Shown here: positions 29,498 to 37,771 of the stretch, piece after piece | Layout: the number at the start of each line of letters is the position of its first letter | How positions within the stretch are numbered: position 1 is the stretch's first letter | From: Rhodococcus triatomae BKS 15-14 | GTDB taxonomy: Bacteria; Actinomycetota; Actinomycetes; Mycobacteriales; Mycobacteriaceae | Length of the DNA stretch: 64,000 nucleotides | Direction of reading: 5' to 3' | NCBI GenBank assembly: GCA_000341795.1 | Contig: AODO01000013.1 | Span: forward strand, 1 to 64,000 | Position numbers and translations under genes: made by a program | The notes under the pieces: generated by a model | Databases searched by the model: none | Told to the model about the DNA's origin: nothing | Seen by the model: only the letters and a program-made list of their open reading frames with translations

Positions 29498-30025
29498 GTG
29501 TTGTCCGAAAGGGATTCGCCGAACACCGGATGGGAGTCGTCGAGCACGGTTCGGGTGCTGCCTCCCGCCCGGCCCCGCGCACTGGCGAAGGTCCCGTTCG
29601 TCGAACTCGCGGACGGGCGACTGCAGGGGGTGGTGTCCAGCGGCTCCGACATCGGGCGGGTGTACGTCTCCTCGGTCGCCGCGGGCAACCACGAATTCGC
29701 GTGCAGCACCAACAACAACCGGCCCTGTGGCGGTGCTCGGGGAACCTTCTGCAAGCACATCACGACACTGGTCGACGAGGCCGCACTCCAGTACGGCGCA
29801 GAGCGAGTGGCTCGCCACCTTCGTGTCGATCTCGCCGCCGAGGAACCGTCCGGGCGAGACATCGTCGAACGGATGCGTGCGGCAGGCCCGGCCCGCGCCG
29901 ACGCCGGTGCCGCCGCGGGCGTGTTCAGTCAATTCCTCAGGCACCTGGCCTACCTGGAACACGCACCCACCACGACACCGATCCCGGAACTGCACTGGTT
30001 CCCGACCACTCGGGCGGTGCGCTGA
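29498..30025 (+). CDS. SWIM-type zinc-finger protein, first gene of the MoxR-VWA-DUF5682 cassette
   Basis: A 175-residue protein with a putative zinc site C69-x7-C77-x7-C85-x-H87, near the SWIM pattern (CxC..CxH) but with the first two Cys farther apart. Residues 30-68 form a beta-rich part (VELADGRLQGVVSSGSDIGRVYVSS) as in SWIM proteins. The C-terminal half is helical. SWIM domains bind DNA or proteins. GAGGAG at 29488-29493 precedes both a GTG at 29498 (4 bases) and a TTG at 29501 (7 bases); either could be the start. Its TGA shares one base with the next gene's ATG (TGATG), so it is coupled to the cassette. Confidence 0.75.
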   Translation: MLSERDSPNTGWESSSTVRVLPPARPRALAKVPFVELADGRLQGVVSSGSDIGRVYVSSVAAGNHEFACSTNNNRPCGGARGTFCKHITTLVDEAALQYGAERVARHLRVDLAAEEPSGRDIVERMRAAGPARADAGAAAGVFSQFLRHLAYLEHAPTTTPIPELHWFPTTRAVR

Positions 30026-31437
30026 TGCGCGGTGATCTCCTCGCCGAACCCGTCGACGGCGTGGCCGAGGCACTGGCCGCCGTCGACGCGGTCGACCGCG
30101 TGCTCGTCGCGGGTCTGCTCCGGCCGCAGCCCGCGCAGGTCGCCGACCTCGCCCTGATCGCGGAGAGTGTGGCGGGGACACCACTCGCCGTCCGGGTGGC
30201 CGAGGCGGCGGACAAGGCCGCTGCCGGCACCGCGGCAGCGGAACACCTGGTGGCCCTCGCCGCCGCCCGCACCGCGCTTCTCGGGGCGGTCCACGACGCC
30301 CTGGCATCTCGGATCGCCGCTGCCACGGGCACCGTCGCGACCGGTGGGTGGGCGACCACACCCGCTGTGGAGACCCAGCCGACCAACCTGCAGGACGCGG
30401 CGTGTTCGTGGCTGTCCGACCTCGCCCGCGCCGGATGGCAGGGCATCGATGCCGGCCTCGTCGCGGGCGCGGCACCGATCGTGGCGGCGATGCTGCCGGA
30501 TGTCACGCACCGGCGGCTGGCGACACTGCTCGACGGCTTCGCCGCGGAGCTCGCCGCGTCCTGCCCCGGGGCCGCACTGGCGCGGATCCCCGCACGGCGC
30601 TGGGCCGACCTGTGGTCGCGCGCGATGCTGCTGACGCGGCCGGGCGCGGTTGCCGTGCCCACGACAGGTGGCGTCAGTGGCCGGCTCCTTCCGCTCGGCG
30701 TGGACTTGCACGAGCACCTGACCGCCGTGCAGGCCCAGGTGCATGCGGTGCTCGAACCCGCGGACGGCGGCGAGCCGCGGCTGGTGCGGGCGACCGTGTC
30801 GACGCCGAAACCGGAGACGATCGTCGGTGCCGGTGTCTGGCAACTGCTCCGCCCGCACCTGTCGCTGCTCGGTGCGGCCGGAGCGGGTCACTCCGTCGAG
30901 ATCACCGACATGCCGATCACCGCCGAGGGTGACCTGCTCTGGCAGGACGCGAACGCCAGGCCGGGCACGACCGCCGATCCGTTCGTCACCGCCCGGGTGG
31001 TGCTGCCCGCCGCCACAGCGACCGACGTCGCGCCGCTGGACCGGCACCCTGCCCGGATCGCCGCCCCGGTGTTCCTCGACGGCTACACGATCGGCGACGC
31101 AATTCCCGGCGACACCTACACCACCGGACACCCGACGTTCACCGTTGCCGGACAACCGATTCGGGTCGACGTCGACCGCACGCCCTCGGCGAGCCCCCTC
31201 ACCCCGGAGGCCGTCGCGGCGTCGACCGCGTGCATCGCACTGCTCAGGTGGGACGACGGATCGTTCGTGCTCCAGCCGCTCGCCGTCGAGACCGTGCTGA
31301 AGCGGAAGACGGTCGCCGTCCACGCCGACGCGTGGGCGGCGGGCACCGACGACAAGATGGGCGCGAAAGCGGAGAAGGCCGCCACCACCGCGGTGGAGGC
31401 GCTCCGCGAACGCGCCGGAAAGCTGCTCCGGGCATGA
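30025..31437 (+). CDS. Uncharacterised protein of the MoxR-VWA-DUF5682 cassette (in the usual DUF5691 position)
   Basis: I do not recognise a domain with confidence in this 470-residue protein. The first 230 residues are Ala-rich and mostly helical, reminiscent of HEAT-like repeats. The second half is mixed, with PLGVDLHEHLTAVQAQVHAVL, a beta-rich middle and a C-terminal Lys/Ala helix (KMGAKAEKAATTAVEAL). No signal peptide or membrane helix is seen. In related gene sets the position between the SWIM and VWA/MoxR genes is often taken by a DUF5691 protein, so this may be a divergent member; that is an inference from context. It overlaps the SWIM gene by 1 base and the VWA gene by 4 bases. Confidence 0.8.
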   Translation: MRGDLLAEPVDGVAEALAAVDAVDRVLVAGLLRPQPAQVADLALIAESVAGTPLAVRVAEAADKAAAGTAAAEHLVALAAARTALLGAVHDALASRIAAATGTVATGGWATTPAVETQPTNLQDAACSWLSDLARAGWQGIDAGLVAGAAPIVAAMLPDVTHRRLATLLDGFAAELAASCPGAALARIPARRWADLWSRAMLLTRPGAVAVPTTGGVSGRLLPLGVDLHEHLTAVQAQVHAVLEPADGGEPRLVRATVSTPKPETIVGAGVWQLLRPHLSLLGAAGAGHSVEITDMPITAEGDLLWQDANARPGTTADPFVTARVVLPAATATDVAPLDRHPARIAAPVFLDGYTIGDAIPGDTYTTGHPTFTVAGQPIRVDVDRTPSASPLTPEAVAASTACIALLRWDDGSFVLQPLAVETVLKRKTVAVHADAWAAGTDDKMGAKAEKAATTAVEALRERAGKLLRA

Positions 31438-32729
31438 CGACCGACGACGACAACCGCCGCCAGGTCCTCTACTGGCGCCTGCTGTCCCGGCTCTTCGATC
31501 CCGAGGAGCAGGCGTCGCTCGAGATGGCCGGCCTCGGCGTCGTCGAGGACATCGGCCTGCCGCCCGCGCTGCTCGATCCGCACGTGTCCGTGGATTCGGT
31601 CGTGCAGCGCCACCCGGAGCTGTCCGCGGAATTCGACCGTCTGATGGTCCCCGGACCCACCGAGGACGGCGATCGGAACGGAGCCGCACAGGTGCGCCGC
31701 GCGGCGCTGGTGTCGAAGGTCCTGCTCAACGTCTTCGCCACGGGCACGGGCAACGTCACCGCCGAGCAGCTGAGCCGCTGGCAGTCCGACACCGGGTGGC
31801 TGCAACGGGCACTGGGATCGGCCCCGGGCGACCGCACCGGAACACTCGGCCCCGAACTGGGCGCGCTCGAAGCTGACCTCGTCGAACGGATGCAGTTGCG
31901 CGAGGTTCTCGCCGACCCCACACTCGCCGCGCACCTGACGCCGAGCATGTCGCTCATCGAGCAGCTCCTGCGAGACAAGAGCAACCTGTCCGGAATCGCC
32001 CTGGCCAACGCGAAGAACCTGATCCGCCGGTTCGTCGACGAGGTCGCGGAGGTGCTGCGCAATCAGGTGGAGAGTGCCACGGCAGGAACGATCGATCGGT
32101 CGATCCCGCCCAAGCGCACCTATCGAAACCTCGACGTCGACCGCACCGTGTGGAAGAACCTCCCGAACTGGAACCCGGACGACGAGCGGCTGTACGTGGA
32201 CCGGCTCCACTACCGGCACACCGCGCGCCGAACGACACCCCAGCGGCTGATCGTCGTCGTCGACCAGTCCGGCTCCATGGTCGACTCGATGGTCAACTGC
32301 GTCATCCTGGCGTCGATCTTCGCGGGGCTGCCCAAGGTCGACGTGCACCTGATCGCCTACGACACACAGGCACTCGACCTGACCCCGTGGGTACACGACC
32401 CGTTCGAGATGCTGTTGCGCACCAACCTCGGCGGCGGAAACGACGGCATGGTCGCGATGTCGCTGACCCAGCCGAAGATCGCCGAACCACGCAACACCGT
32501 CGTCGTGTGGATCTCCGACTTCTACGAGACCCGGGTGGAGCAGCTGTTCGAGTCGATGGCGGGCGTCCACCGATCCGGCGCGAAGTTCATTCCGGTCGGC
32601 TCGGTGACCAGCGGTGGACGCGGCAGCGTCAACCCGTGGTTCCGTGACCGCTTCAAGGATCTCGGCACCCCGGTGATCTCCGGCCACATCGGCAAGCTCG
32701 TCCACGAGCTCAAGACGTTCCTGACCTAG
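31434..32729 (+). CDS. VWA-domain (CoxE-like) protein of the MoxR cassette
   Basis: A 431-residue cytoplasmic protein. Residues 1-260 are helical and include a segment (KRTYRNLDVDRTVWKNLPNWNPDDERLYVD) typical of VWA proteins that pair with MoxR ATPases. The VWA domain begins near residue 268 with a complete MIDAS: D277-Q-S279-G-S281, a second metal-site region in NLGGGNDGMV, and a later Asp in VVVWISDFYE. VWA domains bind partners through a metal ion. MoxR-VWA pairs act as chaperone-like remodelling or metal-insertion machines. The ATG at 31434 overlaps the previous stop (ATGA), and the gene is followed 10 bases later by the MoxR gene. Confidence 0.9.
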   Translation: MTTDDDNRRQVLYWRLLSRLFDPEEQASLEMAGLGVVEDIGLPPALLDPHVSVDSVVQRHPELSAEFDRLMVPGPTEDGDRNGAAQVRRAALVSKVLLNVFATGTGNVTAEQLSRWQSDTGWLQRALGSAPGDRTGTLGPELGALEADLVERMQLREVLADPTLAAHLTPSMSLIEQLLRDKSNLSGIALANAKNLIRRFVDEVAEVLRNQVESATAGTIDRSIPPKRTYRNLDVDRTVWKNLPNWNPDDERLYVDRLHYRHTARRTTPQRLIVVVDQSGSMVDSMVNCVILASIFAGLPKVDVHLIAYDTQALDLTPWVHDPFEMLLRTNLGGGNDGMVAMSLTQPKIAEPRNTVVVWISDFYETRVEQLFESMAGVHRSGAKFIPVGSVTSGGRGSVNPWFRDRFKDLGTPVISGHIGKLVHELKTFLT

Positions 32730-32739
32730 AGAGGTGTTC

Positions 32740-33852
32740 ATGTCCGACCTGCTGCGCGCTCCCGCCGAGCACAAGTACGCCGACGAGCTGGACTGGCTCG
32801 AGTCGATCGACACCGGCCCCAAGCCGTTCGCGTGGCGGCTGTCGCCGAAGACGGTGCGACTGTTCGTCCTCGGCTCCGACCGGTCCGACGGGTTGGAGCG
32901 CGAGATCGCCCAGAAGTGGTTCGGTGACCGCAGTGTCGTCGAGCGCGCGATCGTCACGCTCGCCTCGGACCGCGGGTTGCTGCTCATCGGCGATCCGGGT
33001 ACCGGCAAGAGCTGGCTCGCGGAACTGCTGGCCGCCGCGATCAGCCGCAACTCGACCCTGGTGGTGCAGGGCACCGCGGGCACGACCGAGGATCAGATCA
33101 AGTACTCGTGGAACGTGTCGATGGTGATCGCGAAGGGGCAGTCGCGCGAGTCGATGATCCCCTCGCCCATCATGACCGCGATGGAGACCGGCGCCATCGG
33201 CCGATTCGAGGAACTGACCCGCTCCACCAGCGACGTGCAGGACGCCCTGATCTCGATCCTGTCGGAGAAGTACGTCTCGGTGCCGGAACTCGACAGCGAC
33301 AACATCGTTTTCGCCAAGCCCGGGTTCTCGGTCATCGCCACCGCGAACAGCCGCGACCGCGGCGTCAACGACCTTTCGTCGGCGCTCAAACGGCGCTTCA
33401 ACTTCGTCCGCATCCCCGTGGTGACGAACAAGAAGAGCGAAGCCGAGATCGTCCGCTTCCGCACCGAGGAGTTGCTGCGCAGGCACTCCATCGAACTCGA
33501 CGTCCCGCCGACCCTGCTCGACGTCCTGCTGCGCAGCTTCGCCGACCTGCGGGCCGCCGCCGTCTCGGCGGGCAGCGACGACGAGAAGCTCGAGTCCGCG
33601 CTGTCCACCGCCGAGCAGATCGGCGTCCTCGAGGACGCGATCCTGCACAGCAACTTCTTCGGAGAGACCGCGCTGACCGCACGCACCCTCGCGTCGTCGC
33701 TCGTCGGGTCGCTGGCCCGCCGCCAGCCGGAGGACCTCGCCATCCTCAACAAGTACCTGCACGGGGTCGTCGAACCGCGCAGCAAGGACGAGGGCGGTGA
33801 GTGGCCCGAGTTCCTCGACGGTGGTCGCGACACCATCGCCACCCTGTCGTGA
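32740..33852 (+). CDS. MoxR-family AAA+ ATPase of the VWA/DUF5682 cassette
   Basis: A 370-residue AAA+ ATPase of the MoxR class. Walker A is GDPGTGKS (K90). The Walker B region is unusual: the expected DE is not obvious, and the segment reads GRFEELTRSTSDVQDALISILSEK. Sensor 1 is IATANSRDRG and the arginine region is LKRRFNFVRI. The C-terminal lid is helical. MoxR proteins form hexamers that remodel proteins together with VWA adaptors, which fits the gene just upstream. The ATG at 32740 has AGAGAGG upstream. Its TGA overlaps the GTG of the DUF5682 gene (GTGA), so the two are coupled. Confidence 0.92.
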   Translation: MSDLLRAPAEHKYADELDWLESIDTGPKPFAWRLSPKTVRLFVLGSDRSDGLEREIAQKWFGDRSVVERAIVTLASDRGLLLIGDPGTGKSWLAELLAAAISRNSTLVVQGTAGTTEDQIKYSWNVSMVIAKGQSRESMIPSPIMTAMETGAIGRFEELTRSTSDVQDALISILSEKYVSVPELDSDNIVFAKPGFSVIATANSRDRGVNDLSSALKRRFNFVRIPVVTNKKSEAEIVRFRTEELLRRHSIELDVPPTLLDVLLRSFADLRAAAVSAGSDDEKLESALSTAEQIGVLEDAILHSNFFGETALTARTLASSLVGSLARRQPEDLAILNKYLHGVVEPRSKDEGGEWPEFLDGGRDTIATLS

Positions 33853-36641
33853 CCGCGTCGACCGGCGCGCCCGCGGCGCGGCAGGGGTTCGACGCCCTCC
33901 GAACCCAGTTGCGGGACGCCGCTGCCGCTTTCGCCGACGGCCCCGACGTCCTCGCGGACATTCTGTCCGGCATCGTCGACGACGTGGACCGGGCTCTGGC
34001 GGAGCCGCTCGAGATCTTTCCCGTGTGCCATCACTCGCCTGCATCGGCGGTCGCGATGGCGCGACGGCTGCGCGAGAAGCAACCCACGGTCGTGTACCTC
34101 GAACTGTGCGAGGACATGGCGCCCCTGCTGACCGAGCTGCGCAACTGCCGGCTGCCGGTCGCGGTCCAGGCGTTCGCCACGGAGGTCGTCGGATTTCCGG
34201 CGGAGTGGGCGCCGCTGTCCGTGGTCGCCCCGATCACCGAGGCGTCCGCCGAGTACCAGGCGATCGCCTACGCACTCGACAGTCCCGGTGTGGAGCTGGT
34301 GCTGGTGGACCGTTCGTCCGACCACGTGTACCAGTGGTCGCCGCGCGAGGACGTACCCGAGACGTCGACGCCCGCGGACCCGGCTCCGGAGGAGGAGGCG
34401 GTTCTGCACGGCGAGGCGATCGGTGTCGAGATCGGTGACCTGCGGCCACGTTTCGCGGAACTCGAGGAGCATCTGCTGCACCACGGCCGGGTACGGCACT
34501 GGTCGGAGTGGTGGCACCAGTACGTCGAGGTTCCGCTCGGCGACGGCGACCACGACACCTACCGGCAGGTGATGACCCTGATCGGCAGCCTCTTCAGGCG
34601 GCTGGCGCCGGGCGACGCCCGGCAGGTCCGAGTGGACGAGGACCGGGAGCGGTACATGTGGACCCGGATGCGGGAGCACCTCGCGCGGACGGGCACCGAT
34701 CCCGCCGACTGCCTGTACGTGTGCGGCGCTTTCCACGCCGCGAGCCGGGTGCCGGAGTTCGGCGTCGCCGGCGCCGACACCTTCGAGATCAGCCCGCCGA
34801 GCGGCAGCACCTGGCGGCACGGGCTGATTCCGTCCAGCCACGCGGCGATCGAGGCGCAGTTCGGACTGGCGGGCGGATCGGTCTCGATCGCCGCGACGGA
34901 ATGGGCCAAGTACCTGAAGCGGTCCAGGACGACACCCTTCCGGCTCGCCGGGCAGGCCGGTACGAAACGTACTCCACGGAAAGGGCTTCCGGCGCCGGTC
35001 CCGGATTCGGGGCAGGGTGACGCGCTCACCGGATTCCTGCAGCGCCCACCGGTGCTCGACGCGCTCGACGAGTCGGAGCTGCTCGGCTGGTCGGTGGAGA
35101 TCGTGCGAGCCGCACGGCGCAACGGCTACCTGGCGTCCACCGCCGACGCCATCGCGGTCTTCCAGACCTCGATCCTGTTGGCCGGACTGCGGGACCGCGC
35201 CAAACCGACTCCGTACGACTTCCAGGATGCGGCGATCACCTGCATCGAGAAGGATCGCGTCCCGGGCCGCCGAGACGTGCAGCGGCTCGTCGAGATCATG
35301 ATGGGCGGTGACCGTGTCGGCCAGGTCGGGTACGACGCGCTGCCACCGCTGGCCCGCGACGTCCACGACCGGCTCGCCCCGCTGAACCTGCCCCTGCAGC
35401 AACGCGGGGTGCGCCGTGCACTGCTCGACATCGCGTCGAACCCGGAGCTCGAAGCGTGCTCCGATCTGCTGTGGATGCTCCGGTACCTGCTGCCGGCCGG
35501 CGCCGCCCGCCCGATCATGGGGGAGCGGAGACTGGGGGAGCGGCCGATCCAGGAGTCGTGGGATCTCGCGCTCGGCACACACCAGCGGGCGCTCATCGAA
35601 CTCGGCTACGAGGGAGTCGGCGTCGAGCAGGTGCTCGAGCAGCGGTTGCGGCGCGCTGCACACCACCCGCGCGCCGGCGCGGCGGTGGTCCTCGGGACCG
35701 TCGAGGACGCGACGCTGTACCTGCGCAGCCCCCGACTGTCCGCCGAACTGGGCGCCCGCGCACTCGATGTGCTGTCCGCCGAGCGCGGCGTGGAGGGTGC
35801 GCCGGAGGTGCTCACCCGCATCCGGCGGCTGCTCGCCCATCACCGCACCGCCGACGCGGTGCTGCCTGCGTGGATCGAATCGTTCGTCAAGGCCGGCTAC
35901 GCCCACTACTGCACGCTGCTCCCGACGGCGTTCGTCGACGACGACGCCACCGCGCCGCAGGTCGCCGCGATGCTGGGGTTCCTGTTCGGTATGGAATCCC
36001 TCGCGTTGTCGCTGGGCTGCGACCGGTCCCAGCTGGAACTTGCTCTTGCACAGGCACATCCGCGGGACCCGGACCGGATCGCGCTGATGTGGGCGGCGCA
36101 GGTCCAGCTCGGGGAGCTGAGCAGGGCCGAACTTCGCGCCCGATGCGACGAACTGCTGTCGAATGCGCTGACCCTGCCCGCGTATCCGCGTTATCTCAGC
36201 GGATTCGTGCACGCGCTCGAACCGGTTCCCGGGCTGGTCGACTTCGTGGTCGAGGTGGTGTCCACGGCGTTCGCACGCTTGCCGGACCGGTTGCTGATCC
36301 CGTGGCTGCCGACACTCGTCGCCACGCTGCGGGCGAGTGGGACGCACCTGGCGCCCCGGCTCACCAGGGAGGCGGCCCGGACCTTCCCCGGCACGCTCGC
36401 GGCGCTGGACCGGTGGGTGCCGCCGTGGCTGCAGCCCGACGACGATCGCCGCCCCGCCGGACGACACACCGATGCACGGGTGCGCCTGCTCGCGTCGTAT
36501 CCCGGATCGTGCACTGCGCTCGCCGAGTTGCTCGGTTACGAGGACCGGTGGGAGGACTCGTCCCCGGACCGCTCCGTCACCCTCCTGGCCGAGTTTCCGG
36601 ACACCGCAGTCGCAGTGGAGGCGCTGATGTCCCCGCGATGA
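33849..36641 (+). CDS. DUF5682 protein (ChaN/EreA-like), last gene of the cassette
   Basis: A 930-residue protein. The first 320 residues carry the DUF5682 landmarks: FPVCHHSPASA (H61, H62), TVVYLELCED, and later YVCGAFHAAS. They place it near the ChaN / erythromycin-esterase / TraB fold, in which His and Glu form a hydrolytic or metal site. The remaining 600 residues are Leu-rich helical repeats, probably a solenoid for partner binding, with no membrane helices. The family is regularly linked to MoxR, VWA and SWIM genes in bacteria, but I know of no established function. The GTG at 33849 overlaps the MoxR stop. It ends 21 bases from a convergent acyltransferase gene. Confidence 0.85.
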   Translation: MTASTGAPAARQGFDALRTQLRDAAAAFADGPDVLADILSGIVDDVDRALAEPLEIFPVCHHSPASAVAMARRLREKQPTVVYLELCEDMAPLLTELRNCRLPVAVQAFATEVVGFPAEWAPLSVVAPITEASAEYQAIAYALDSPGVELVLVDRSSDHVYQWSPREDVPETSTPADPAPEEEAVLHGEAIGVEIGDLRPRFAELEEHLLHHGRVRHWSEWWHQYVEVPLGDGDHDTYRQVMTLIGSLFRRLAPGDARQVRVDEDRERYMWTRMREHLARTGTDPADCLYVCGAFHAASRVPEFGVAGADTFEISPPSGSTWRHGLIPSSHAAIEAQFGLAGGSVSIAATEWAKYLKRSRTTPFRLAGQAGTKRTPRKGLPAPVPDSGQGDALTGFLQRPPVLDALDESELLGWSVEIVRAARRNGYLASTADAIAVFQTSILLAGLRDRAKPTPYDFQDAAITCIEKDRVPGRRDVQRLVEIMMGGDRVGQVGYDALPPLARDVHDRLAPLNLPLQQRGVRRALLDIASNPELEACSDLLWMLRYLLPAGAARPIMGERRLGERPIQESWDLALGTHQRALIELGYEGVGVEQVLEQRLRRAAHHPRAGAAVVLGTVEDATLYLRSPRLSAELGARALDVLSAERGVEGAPEVLTRIRRLLAHHRTADAVLPAWIESFVKAGYAHYCTLLPTAFVDDDATAPQVAAMLGFLFGMESLALSLGCDRSQLELALAQAHPRDPDRIALMWAAQVQLGELSRAELRARCDELLSNALTLPAYPRYLSGFVHALEPVPGLVDFVVEVVSTAFARLPDRLLIPWLPTLVATLRASGTHLAPRLTREAARTFPGTLAALDRWVPPWLQPDDDRRPAGRHTDARVRLLASYPGSCTALAELLGYEDRWEDSSPDRSVTLLAEFPDTAVAVEALMSPR

Positions 36642-36662: not shown

Positions 36663-37559
36663 TCATTCGAGTCCGCTCGCCCGTCGCGGGTTCGTGTCGA
36701 CGGTCCAGAGCGGTTGCAGCATGTGCCAATCGGCGGGATGCGCGGCAATCCCGGCAGCGAACCGGTCGGCCAAGGCCTGGGTCGTGTGCTGCACTCCGCC
36801 CGCGGTGTCGACGGGTGGATCGACACGGAATCCCCACCCGTCCGGTGTGAACCAGCAGTGCACGGGAAGCAGCGGGGCCCCCGTGTCGATCGCCAGCCGA
36901 GCGGGACCGGCCGGCATCCGGGCCTGCTCCCCGAAGAACGTCACCGGGACTCCCGTGCCGCTGAGGTCGCGGTCCGCGAGCAAGCCGACGATCCGTCCCC
37001 GTCTCAGCCTGGTCGTGAGGCTGTCGAACGGCGGCTCCGCGCCGCCGCTGAGGGGGATGATCTCGAACCCGAGGCTCTCCCGGAATCGGACGAAACGCTG
37101 GAACAACGACTCGGGCCGGAGCCGTTCGGCGACGACGACCGGAGGCCCGGCACGGTGGGCCAGCCAGACCCCTGCGAGGTCCCAGTTGCCGCTGTGCGAC
37201 AGGGCCAGCACACCGCCGCGTCCGTTCTCGGTCACCGCTCGAATGTGCTCGAGTCCGGTCGCGACCGATTCGACGGTGTCGGTCAGCCGCACCGGATCCA
37301 TCGACGGCAGCCGGAACGCCTCGCACCAGTAGCGGGCGTACGAGCGCATGCTCGCGCGTATCAGGTCGTCGGGTACCCGAGAAGGCGTCGTCGCGACGAC
37401 CCGTGCGAGGTTCCGGCGCAGCTGTTCCGGCCCCCCGTTCAGTGACGCGCGATCCGCCGCGGCGTCGAACAGCCGCCGGGCCCAGGGCTGGGGCAGGGTG
37501 CGAACCAGGCGCCACCCGGCCGCGTAGCCGAGATCCTGGAACTTCTCGCGCCGGTTCAC
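36663..37559 (-). CDS. PatA-like phosphatidylinositol mannoside acyltransferase (LpxL/HtrB family)
   Basis: A 298-residue membrane-associated acyltransferase. It closely follows PatA (Rv2611c) of mycobacteria: GYAAGWRLVRTLP near the N-terminus, GGPEQLRRNLARV, the catalytic HxxxxD motif in SHSGNWDLAGVWL, GFEIIPLSGG, ADRDLSGTGV..FFGE and the ending IAAHPADWHMLQPLW. PatA adds palmitate to the mannose of PIM lipids. The gene is away from the usual pimA-patA locus, so it may be a second copy with another acceptor. The GTG at 37559 fits the PatA N-terminus and has GAGGA about 7 bases upstream; a longer frame adds Arg-rich residues unlike the family. Confidence 0.85.
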   Translation of the reverse strand: MNRREKFQDLGYAAGWRLVRTLPQPWARRLFDAAADRASLNGGPEQLRRNLARVVATTPSRVPDDLIRASMRSYARYWCEAFRLPSMDPVRLTDTVESVATGLEHIRAVTENGRGGVLALSHSGNWDLAGVWLAHRAGPPVVVAERLRPESLFQRFVRFRESLGFEIIPLSGGAEPPFDSLTTRLRRGRIVGLLADRDLSGTGVPVTFFGEQARMPAGPARLAIDTGAPLLPVHCWFTPDGWGFRVDPPVDTAGGVQHTTQALADRFAAGIAAHPADWHMLQPLWTVDTNPRRASGLE

Positions 37560-37771
37560 GGCGTTGTCCTCGCGTCGCGGCCACCGGACACCGGCTGGCC
37601 GACCGGCGGGTCGCGGTCGACGGACCCCGCTCCGTCGGTGGAGTCCTGGCGGTGACCGAACGATCCGGACGATCGCTGACGTTCGCACATCCTCCCAGTC
37701 TCCTCCGCCGAGCGTGACGAGCGAAGGTTGCGACGCTCACCCGTGCGAGGTCGGGAACGTCCCGACCCGTC

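What the first reader, a model, noticed from the sequence alone, without database searches (positions are those of the whole stretch)
29498..36641. Five-gene coupled cassette: SWIM zinc protein, unassigned protein, VWA, MoxR AAA+ and DUF5682 protein
Four of five junctions overlap or are within 10 bases (TGATG, ATGA, 10-base gap, GTGA), so the set is one translational unit. It joins a hexameric remodelling ATPase with a metal-dependent adaptor (intact MIDAS D277/S279/S281), a zinc protein with an unusual C-x7-C-x7-C-x-H spacing, and a 930-residue protein with a ChaN/EreA-like His-rich active region plus a helical solenoid. Sets like this recur in bacteria, but I know of no established function. 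The 470-residue second gene has no domain I recognise. A regulated protein-remodelling or conflict (defence) system is a reasonable hypothesis. The MoxR Walker B region also lacks an obvious DE pair.
Basis: partly seen in the sequence, partly recalled or inferred. Interest (0 to 1): 0.78.

Follow-up and report, generated by a model that had tools for sequence, protein, structure and literature searches.

The report
Five-gene MoxR-VWA machine, relative of yehLMPQ
Five tightly linked genes in a probable Rhodococcus genome encode a variant of the unstudied E. coli yehLMPQ protein-remodelling module, in which the zinc protein seems to be split in two and one half belongs to no known family.

Summary
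In detail: five co-directional, tightly packed genes (29498-36641). It is not an orphan set. MoxR is 41% identical to E. coli YehL over 340 residues, VWA 32% identical to YehP over 265, and the 930-aa protein matches PF18934/DUF5682, the family of YehM. E. coli yehL-yehM-yehP-yehQ is therefore the homologous module, and "YehL" is a named MoxR subfamily in print. The five genes keep order and strand in 80 of the 80 best relatives (all Actinomycetota); no flanking family occurs in more than 8 of 80. In 9 of 80 loci the SWIM-like protein and the "unassigned" 470-aa protein are one ORF, so gene 2 is probably half of a YehQ-like adaptor; its modelled relative ends in what may be two OB folds (weak matches). 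MoxR Walker B is an invariant EE, not a defect. The cassette is accessory: 2 of 6 listed congeners carry it, at one syntenic site. Defence is not supported: no effector turnover, few defence neighbours, and yehLMPQ is nearly universal in E. coli. Best reading: a MoxR-VWA motor remodels or metallates the DUF5682 protein, a putative Tiki-like enzyme on a helical solenoid, with SWIM-g2 as adaptor. Function is unproven.

The parts
29498..30025 (+). gene 1, SWIM-like zinc protein (175 aa), C69-x7-C77-x7-C85-x-H87
   Evidence: ligands invariant 81 of 81; no Pfam SWIM hit; one ORF with gene 2 in 9 of 80 relatives
30025..31437 (+). gene 2 (g2), 470 aa, no known family; helical half plus beta half with two OB-like domains in a modelled relative; probably the C-terminal half of the SWIM adaptor
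   Evidence: (no family); model of a natural Streptomyces fusion, L102; weak OB matches
31434..32729 (+). gene 3, CoxE-type VWA protein (431 aa), YehP homologue, MIDAS D277-S279-S281
   Evidence: PF05762 E 3.3e-26; 32% to YehP over 265 aa, E 5e-42
32740..33852 (+). gene 4, MoxR AAA+ ATPase (370 aa), YehL type; Walker A GDPGTGKS, Walker B RFEELTR
   Evidence: AAA_5 E 2.4e-37; 41% to YehL over 340 aa, E 5e-85; RavA E 0.083 over 33 aa
33849..36641 (+). gene 5, DUF5682 protein (930 aa), YehM homologue: N-domain with H61 H62, E85, D154, R266-E267, G293-H296; C-terminal helical (HEAT-like) solenoid
   Evidence: PF18934 100 bits, E 8.9e-29; cross-type invariants in 16 of 16; model and matches

Best explanation
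It is an actinobacterial variant of the YehL-type MoxR-VWA module (E. coli yehLMPQ). Mechanism (inferred): MoxR forms an ATP-driven hexamer; the CoxE-type VWA protein docks on it and grips a partner through its MIDAS; the partner is the DUF5682 protein, whose N-domain may be a Tiki/ChaN-type metal-dependent enzyme and whose C-terminus is a helical scaffold. ATP hydrolysis changes the conformation of DUF5682, either loading its metal or switching it on, much as NorQD serves nitric oxide reductase. The split SWIM-g2 adaptor recruits the substrate, possibly a nucleic acid. Shown here: homology to yehLMPQ, conserved linkage, intact ATPase and zinc-ligand residues and the MIDAS DxSxS, SWIM-g2 and DUF5682-VWA single ORFs in relatives. 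Not shown: any contact, activity, metal or substrate.
For: Homology. Order and strand kept in 80 of the 80 best relatives. MoxR and VWA beside DUF5682, and a SWIM-motif ORF beside them or within about 2 kb, in 20 of 20 other loci from 17 genomes. One-ORF forms: SWIM-g2 in 9 of 80; DUF5682 and VWA in 5 of those 20 loci, both domains confirmed by Pfam in the one checked, L161, 1266 aa. Cross-type invariant residues in DUF5682. YehL is a named MoxR subfamily (107, passage). NorQD abstract for the mechanism.
Confidence: 0.5

Rival explanations
1. A conflict/defence system like the MoxR-vWA ternary systems: MoxR-VWA sets a threshold, SWIM-g2 senses invader nucleic acid, and DUF5682 is the effector enzyme.
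For: Patchy: 7 of 201 family genomes carry the full-length type and 2 of the 6 listed congeners, at one syntenic site. The tree puts the window cassette inside a Streptomyces/Pseudonocardiaceae clade, apart from a same-family cassette (G060, a long branch whose place is unsure), which suggests transfer. No flanking family in more than 8 of 80 loci. MoxR has weak matches to MADS defence ATPases: MadB E 4.4e-10, 39 bits against a cut-off of 475, and mad8 E 1.7e-6. OB-like domain in g2's relative.
Against: Kaur et al. ask for effector turnover and variable segments: the first is not seen, and per-gene entropy is low (99, no yardstick). No PADLOC match for SWIM, g2 or DUF5682; TerY E 0.0013 for VWA. 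At most 5 of 139 neighbours match PADLOC at 1e-20. yehLMPQ is in 5301 of 5426 E. coli genomes. No relative of DUF5682 in 50,697 phage records and no close relative of MoxR in viral contigs.
Confidence: 0.15
2. A cofactor- or metal-insertion chaperone (CoxD/CoxE, NorQ/NorD or Mg-chelatase-like) whose client is an enzyme encoded elsewhere; DUF5682 is a scaffold, not the client.
For: MoxR plus CoxE-type VWA (PF05762); weak cobaltochelatase match of VWA, E 0.0049; helical solenoid in DUF5682; a copper-evolution study lists yehM among mutated genes (50, passages).
Against: No conserved neighbouring enzyme found beyond the five genes; DUF5682-VWA single ORFs favour DUF5682 as the direct partner; N-domain residues are invariant like an active site.
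Confidence: 0.25
3. A row of unrelated genes that merely share a promoter.
For: None beyond co-direction.
Against: 80 of 80 conserved sets with poorly conserved flanks, and two kinds of fusion.
Confidence: 0.02

Closest known systems
E. coli yehL-yehM-yehP-yehQ (YehL subfamily of MoxR; no function found in the searches made)
   Same: Homologous MoxR, DUF5682 and VWA proteins plus a SWIM protein, all adjacent
   Different: Gene order differs (SWIM-g2-VWA-MoxR-DUF5682 here); SWIM protein apparently split in two, with C-x7-C-x7-C-x-H instead of CxC...CxH; DUF5682 930 against 759 aa; nearly universal in E. coli, patchy here
Actinobacterial loci with SWIM, DUF5691, MoxR, DUF5682 and VWA (L152, L155, L165)
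   Same: Same four core families plus a fifth gene
   Different: Fifth gene is DUF5691/PF18944, to which g2 shows no detectable similarity
MoxR-vWA ternary conflict systems (VMAP, iSTAND, FtsH, beta-propeller; Kaur et al. 2020, PMC7159879)
   Same: MoxR plus vWA pair with a further component
   Different: That paper's main text has no YehL, YehP, SWIM, DUF5682, EreA or TraB; no variable effector here
NorQ/NorD (PMC13036017, abstract and section list seen)
   Same: MoxR AAA+ with VWA partner; model for how ATPase work reaches a metal client
   Different: Client is nitric oxide reductase; no SWIM or DUF5682 protein (recalled)

Membership tests
YehL-type MoxR-VWA module (yehLMPQ) | MoxR ATPase closest to YehL | tested here: met
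   41% over 340 aa, E 5e-85; RavA only 33 aa, E 0.083 (117); no tree of all MoxR subfamilies was made
YehL-type MoxR-VWA module (yehLMPQ) | YehP-like VWA | tested here: met
   32% over 265 aa, E 5e-42; ViaA best E 3.3 (119)
YehL-type MoxR-VWA module (yehLMPQ) | DUF5682 (YehM) protein | tested here: met
   PF18934 100 bits, E 8.9e-29, though hmmscan missed it; hhalign to YehM prob 92.6, E 4.7e-7 (40)
YehL-type MoxR-VWA module (yehLMPQ) | SWIM protein (YehQ) | tested here: inconclusive
   Four invariant C/C/C/H ligands and natural SWIM-g2 ORFs of about YehQ size; but no PF04434 hit and no significant profile match to YehQ
MoxR-vWA ternary conflict systems | Variable effector within a constant operon | tested here: not met
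   Same five genes in 80 of the 80 best relatives
MoxR-vWA ternary conflict systems | Hypervariable segment | tested here: inconclusive
   Mean entropy 0.18-0.75 bits per gene, most variable 30-residue windows up to 1.89 bits (g2 94-123); low, but no known conflict system was measured as a yardstick
MoxR-vWA ternary conflict systems | VMAP, iSTAND, FtsH or beta-propeller third component | tested here: inconclusive
   No such Pfam match above cut-off, but the same scan missed DUF5682, so absence is weak
MoxR-vWA ternary conflict systems | Lateral transfer and patchy presence | tested here: met
   Patchy; transfer suggested by the tree, with a long-branch caveat
Tiki/TraB/ChaN superfamily (DUF5682 N-domain) | Sequence match to superfamily models | tested here: inconclusive
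   TraB_PrgY_gumN and ChaN models match 3 of 16 members each, best E 0.013 and 0.019
Tiki/TraB/ChaN superfamily (DUF5682 N-domain) | Invariant His near the N-terminus, Glu and a later GxxH (motif definition recalled, from no call) | tested here: met
   H61, H62, E85, G293, H296 invariant in 16 of 16
Tiki/TraB/ChaN superfamily (DUF5682 N-domain) | Fold | tested here: inconclusive
   N-domain pLDDT mostly under 60
DUF5691 (PF18944) for g2 | Profile match | tested here: not met
   No hmmscan hit; hhalign E 0.34 against a set of five DUF5691 proteins

The most novel reading that the evidence does not exclude
A further class of MoxR-VWA machine, unlike the four described ternary systems: a nucleic-acid-binding SWIM-OB adaptor (split in this lineage) recruits a target, and the MoxR-VWA motor switches on a Tiki-like metallohydrolase (DUF5682) held on a helical scaffold. 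E. coli yehLMPQ would be its unrecognised model-organism member.
Probability: 0.15. Interest if true: 0.75.

Novelty: new variant of a known kind. Interest (0 to 1): 0.5.

Why it matters
It ties an unassigned actinobacterial cassette to a nearly universal E. coli operon for which the searches here found no function, so the question can be tested in a model organism. It also offers two kinds of natural fusion that predict direct partners, and suggests that the last unassigned gene is half of a split adaptor.

Tried and rejected

Literature: DUF5682 with MoxR, and DUF5682 or DUF5691, zero papers; MoxR/SWIM/vWA/conflict systems; 'SWIM zinc finger' with MoxR, zero; yeh gene names; Tiki/TraB/EreA/ChaN/GumN, nothing useful in the 20 of 148 listed; YehL with RavA/MoxR (106). 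Only listings were seen except: PMC7159879 (outline, sections 6 and 8, term finds); PMC10910872, PMC12409786, PMC3893208, PMC11834572, PMC11432383, PMC6442406 (passages); PMC13036017 (abstract and section list). PMC8422072 was opened for yehP/yehM and has neither. PMC6442406 lists wild, mutated and deleted yehQ strains; I did not read the phenotype. PMC12409786 lists yehM among genes mutated in copper-evolved E. coli. Most of the listed whole-word hits for 'Yehl' look like a surname (25 of 581 listed), so a paper on YehL could be hidden there.
Full report
WHAT IS THERE. Five genes on the + strand, 29498-36641, with junctions TGATG, ATGA, a 10-base gap and GTGA. It counted five junctions; five genes have four, and all are tight. 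A TetR gene lies 73 bases upstream on the same strand, but the four congeners without the cassette keep it, so I leave it out.

FAMILIES. VWA is CoxE-type (PF05762, E 3.3e-26) and MoxR is AAA_5 (E 2.4e-37); hmmscan gave genes 1 and 2 no Pfam family at E 1 and gene 5 only a sub-threshold match. NCBIfam gave no family at its cut-off; below it, MoxR matches GvpN (E 1.9e-12) and MadB (E 4.4e-10) (10). PADLOC has only weak matches for MoxR (best mad8, E 1.7e-6) and VWA (TerY, E 0.0013), and none for the other three (11). Gene 5 is nevertheless DUF5682: the genome search with PF18934 scores it 100 bits, E 8.9e-29, profile positions 3-677 of 727 (64), and a Streptomyces homologue in the same five-gene order is annotated DUF5682 (20).

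RELATION TO E. COLI. K-12 carries yehL (MoxR), yehM, yehP (VWA), yehQ (SWIM) in a row (25). The window MoxR is 41% identical to YehL over 340 residues (118), while RavA matches only over 33 residues, E 0.083 (117). VWA is 32% identical to YehP over 265 (120) and does not match ViaA (119). YehM is DUF5682 at E 2.4e-98 and YehQ has SWIM motifs (39). A profile of window-type DUF5682 aligns to YehM over 484 columns, prob 92.6, E 4.7e-7 (40). YehL is one of seven MoxR subfamilies in PMC3893208 (107, passage) and one of nine in PMC11432383 (109, passage). The operon gives a match in 5301 of 5426 E. coli genomes, 5162 with at least 80% coverage (104); intactness of each gene was not checked.

CONSERVATION OF THE UNIT. 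All 80 have the five genes in the same order and strand (48). Before that, 17 loci from the order-wide search and the plasmids showed the same order (41); in one of them (L040) the MoxR and DUF5682 ORFs were incomplete as picked. Among flanking ORFs picked by codon bias, no family outside the cassette occurs in more than 8 of 80 loci (49); some loci sit on short contigs, so this is a lower bound. Two larger clusters in that output (18 and 14 loci) are, by position, antisense ORFs inside the cassette.

OTHER TYPES. I read 16 further DUF5682 regions chosen from the 26 matches, three from the order-wide search, and E. coli: 20 loci from 17 genomes. MoxR and VWA sit beside DUF5682, and an ORF with a C-x-C...C-x-H motif lies beside them or within about 2 kb, in 20 of 20. 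The motif search was a loose pattern and also gave chance opposite-strand or odd hits in two loci; of six such SWIM proteins given to Pfam, five matched PF04434 and one (L161) did not. Several loci add DUF5691: five of six candidates matched PF18944, two of them only in part, and in L165 it is fused to SWIM (74). In five loci (L160-L162, L166, L167) DUF5682 and VWA lie on one ORF (64, 68); Pfam confirms both domains in L161, 1266 aa, the only one checked.

GENE 5. Across 16 sequences of all types these are among the invariant residues (window numbering): H61, H62, P64, E85, P103, E135, D154, W222, E227, R266, E267, M270, G293, H296 (134; also 101, 15 rows). This looks like an active or metal site. 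Besides DUF5682 (15 of 16 members), the only models matching more than one member are TraB_PrgY_gumN and the ChaN/Tiki-superfamily haem-binding family, 3 members each, E 0.013 and 0.019; single members match CBM46 (E 0.0047), DUF3027 and Glyco_transf_4, which I read as chance (137). The AlphaFold model (mean pLDDT 54.5) is poor in this domain and good only for the C-terminal helices, about 590-820 (133), which match helical-repeat proteins (138).

RESIDUES. Zn ligands 81 of 81; MIDAS D, S, S, D 80 of 80; MIDAS T is T in 53 and N in 27 including the window; MoxR K90, S91, E157, E158, N203, R218, R219 81 of 81 (99). The EE Walker B is shared by YehL and every MoxR aligned, 12 of 12 (45).

DISTRIBUTION AND TRANSFER. 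With the window DUF5682 protein: 19 of 101 genomes of the order, three of them weak (17); 5 of 296 of the phylum, with few candidates scored per genome (32); 22 of 201 of the family, of which 7 are full-length window type and 15 weak (84). With PF18934: 17 of 198 of the phylum, and E. coli and Deinobacterium chartae among 14 controls (64). Of six genus members listed, two have the cassette; the flanks (hydrolase-SDR-monooxygenase-TetR and AAA-kgd) are kept in 6 of 6, and in the four without it TetR and AAA lie about 1.1-4.3 kb apart (94). G472 is probably Rhodococcus sp. RD6.2 (its contig has the same length as that of L046), so the window is probably Rhodococcus (inference). In the DUF5682 tree the window and RD6.2 pair (support 100) inside a Streptomyces/Pseudonocardiaceae clade (support 100), while same-family G060 falls in the other clade; G060 is a long branch whose place the tool calls unsure (96). 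Transfer is suggested, not proven. Genus labels are otherwise clustered (16 changes, least possible 15), so the cassette is not hyper-mobile.

DEFENCE? Kaur et al. list effector turnover, variable segments and patchiness as marks (52). The first is not met (48), the second is low but has no yardstick (99), the third is met (84). Of 139 nearest neighbours given (of 150 selected), at most 5 match PADLOC at 1e-20 (131); the commonest Pfam family among them is Phytase, 7 of 139 (132). I had no background rate for either.

MECHANISM. Described for other MoxR-VWA pairs: VWA grips a peptide of the client and MoxR ATPase work changes its conformation (51); NorQ twists a NorD linker for metal insertion (110, abstract). 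By analogy, and because of the DUF5682-VWA single ORFs, I infer that DUF5682 is the direct partner. Substrate, metal and physiological role are unknown. Confidence: module identity about 0.9, the stated mechanism about 0.5.

Noticed in passing
L160-L162, L166, L167: DUF5682 and VWA encoded on one ORF; both domains confirmed by Pfam in L161 only.
   Followed up: partly
L191-L194, interval between TetR and the AAA gene: The syntenic site is 1.1-4.3 kb long in congeners without the cassette, so it may be a variable spot; its content was not read.
   Followed up: no
L040: MoxR and DUF5682 ORFs appear incomplete or split as picked; possible decay, sequencing error or ORF picking.
   Followed up: no
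window 36663-37688 (-): Predicted acyltransferase between the cassette and the AAA gene; not found at this site in the five congeners read, which keep relatives of it elsewhere.
   Followed up: partly
genomes G123 and G256: Three DUF5682 matches in one genome, suggesting paralogous modules of different types.
   Followed up: no
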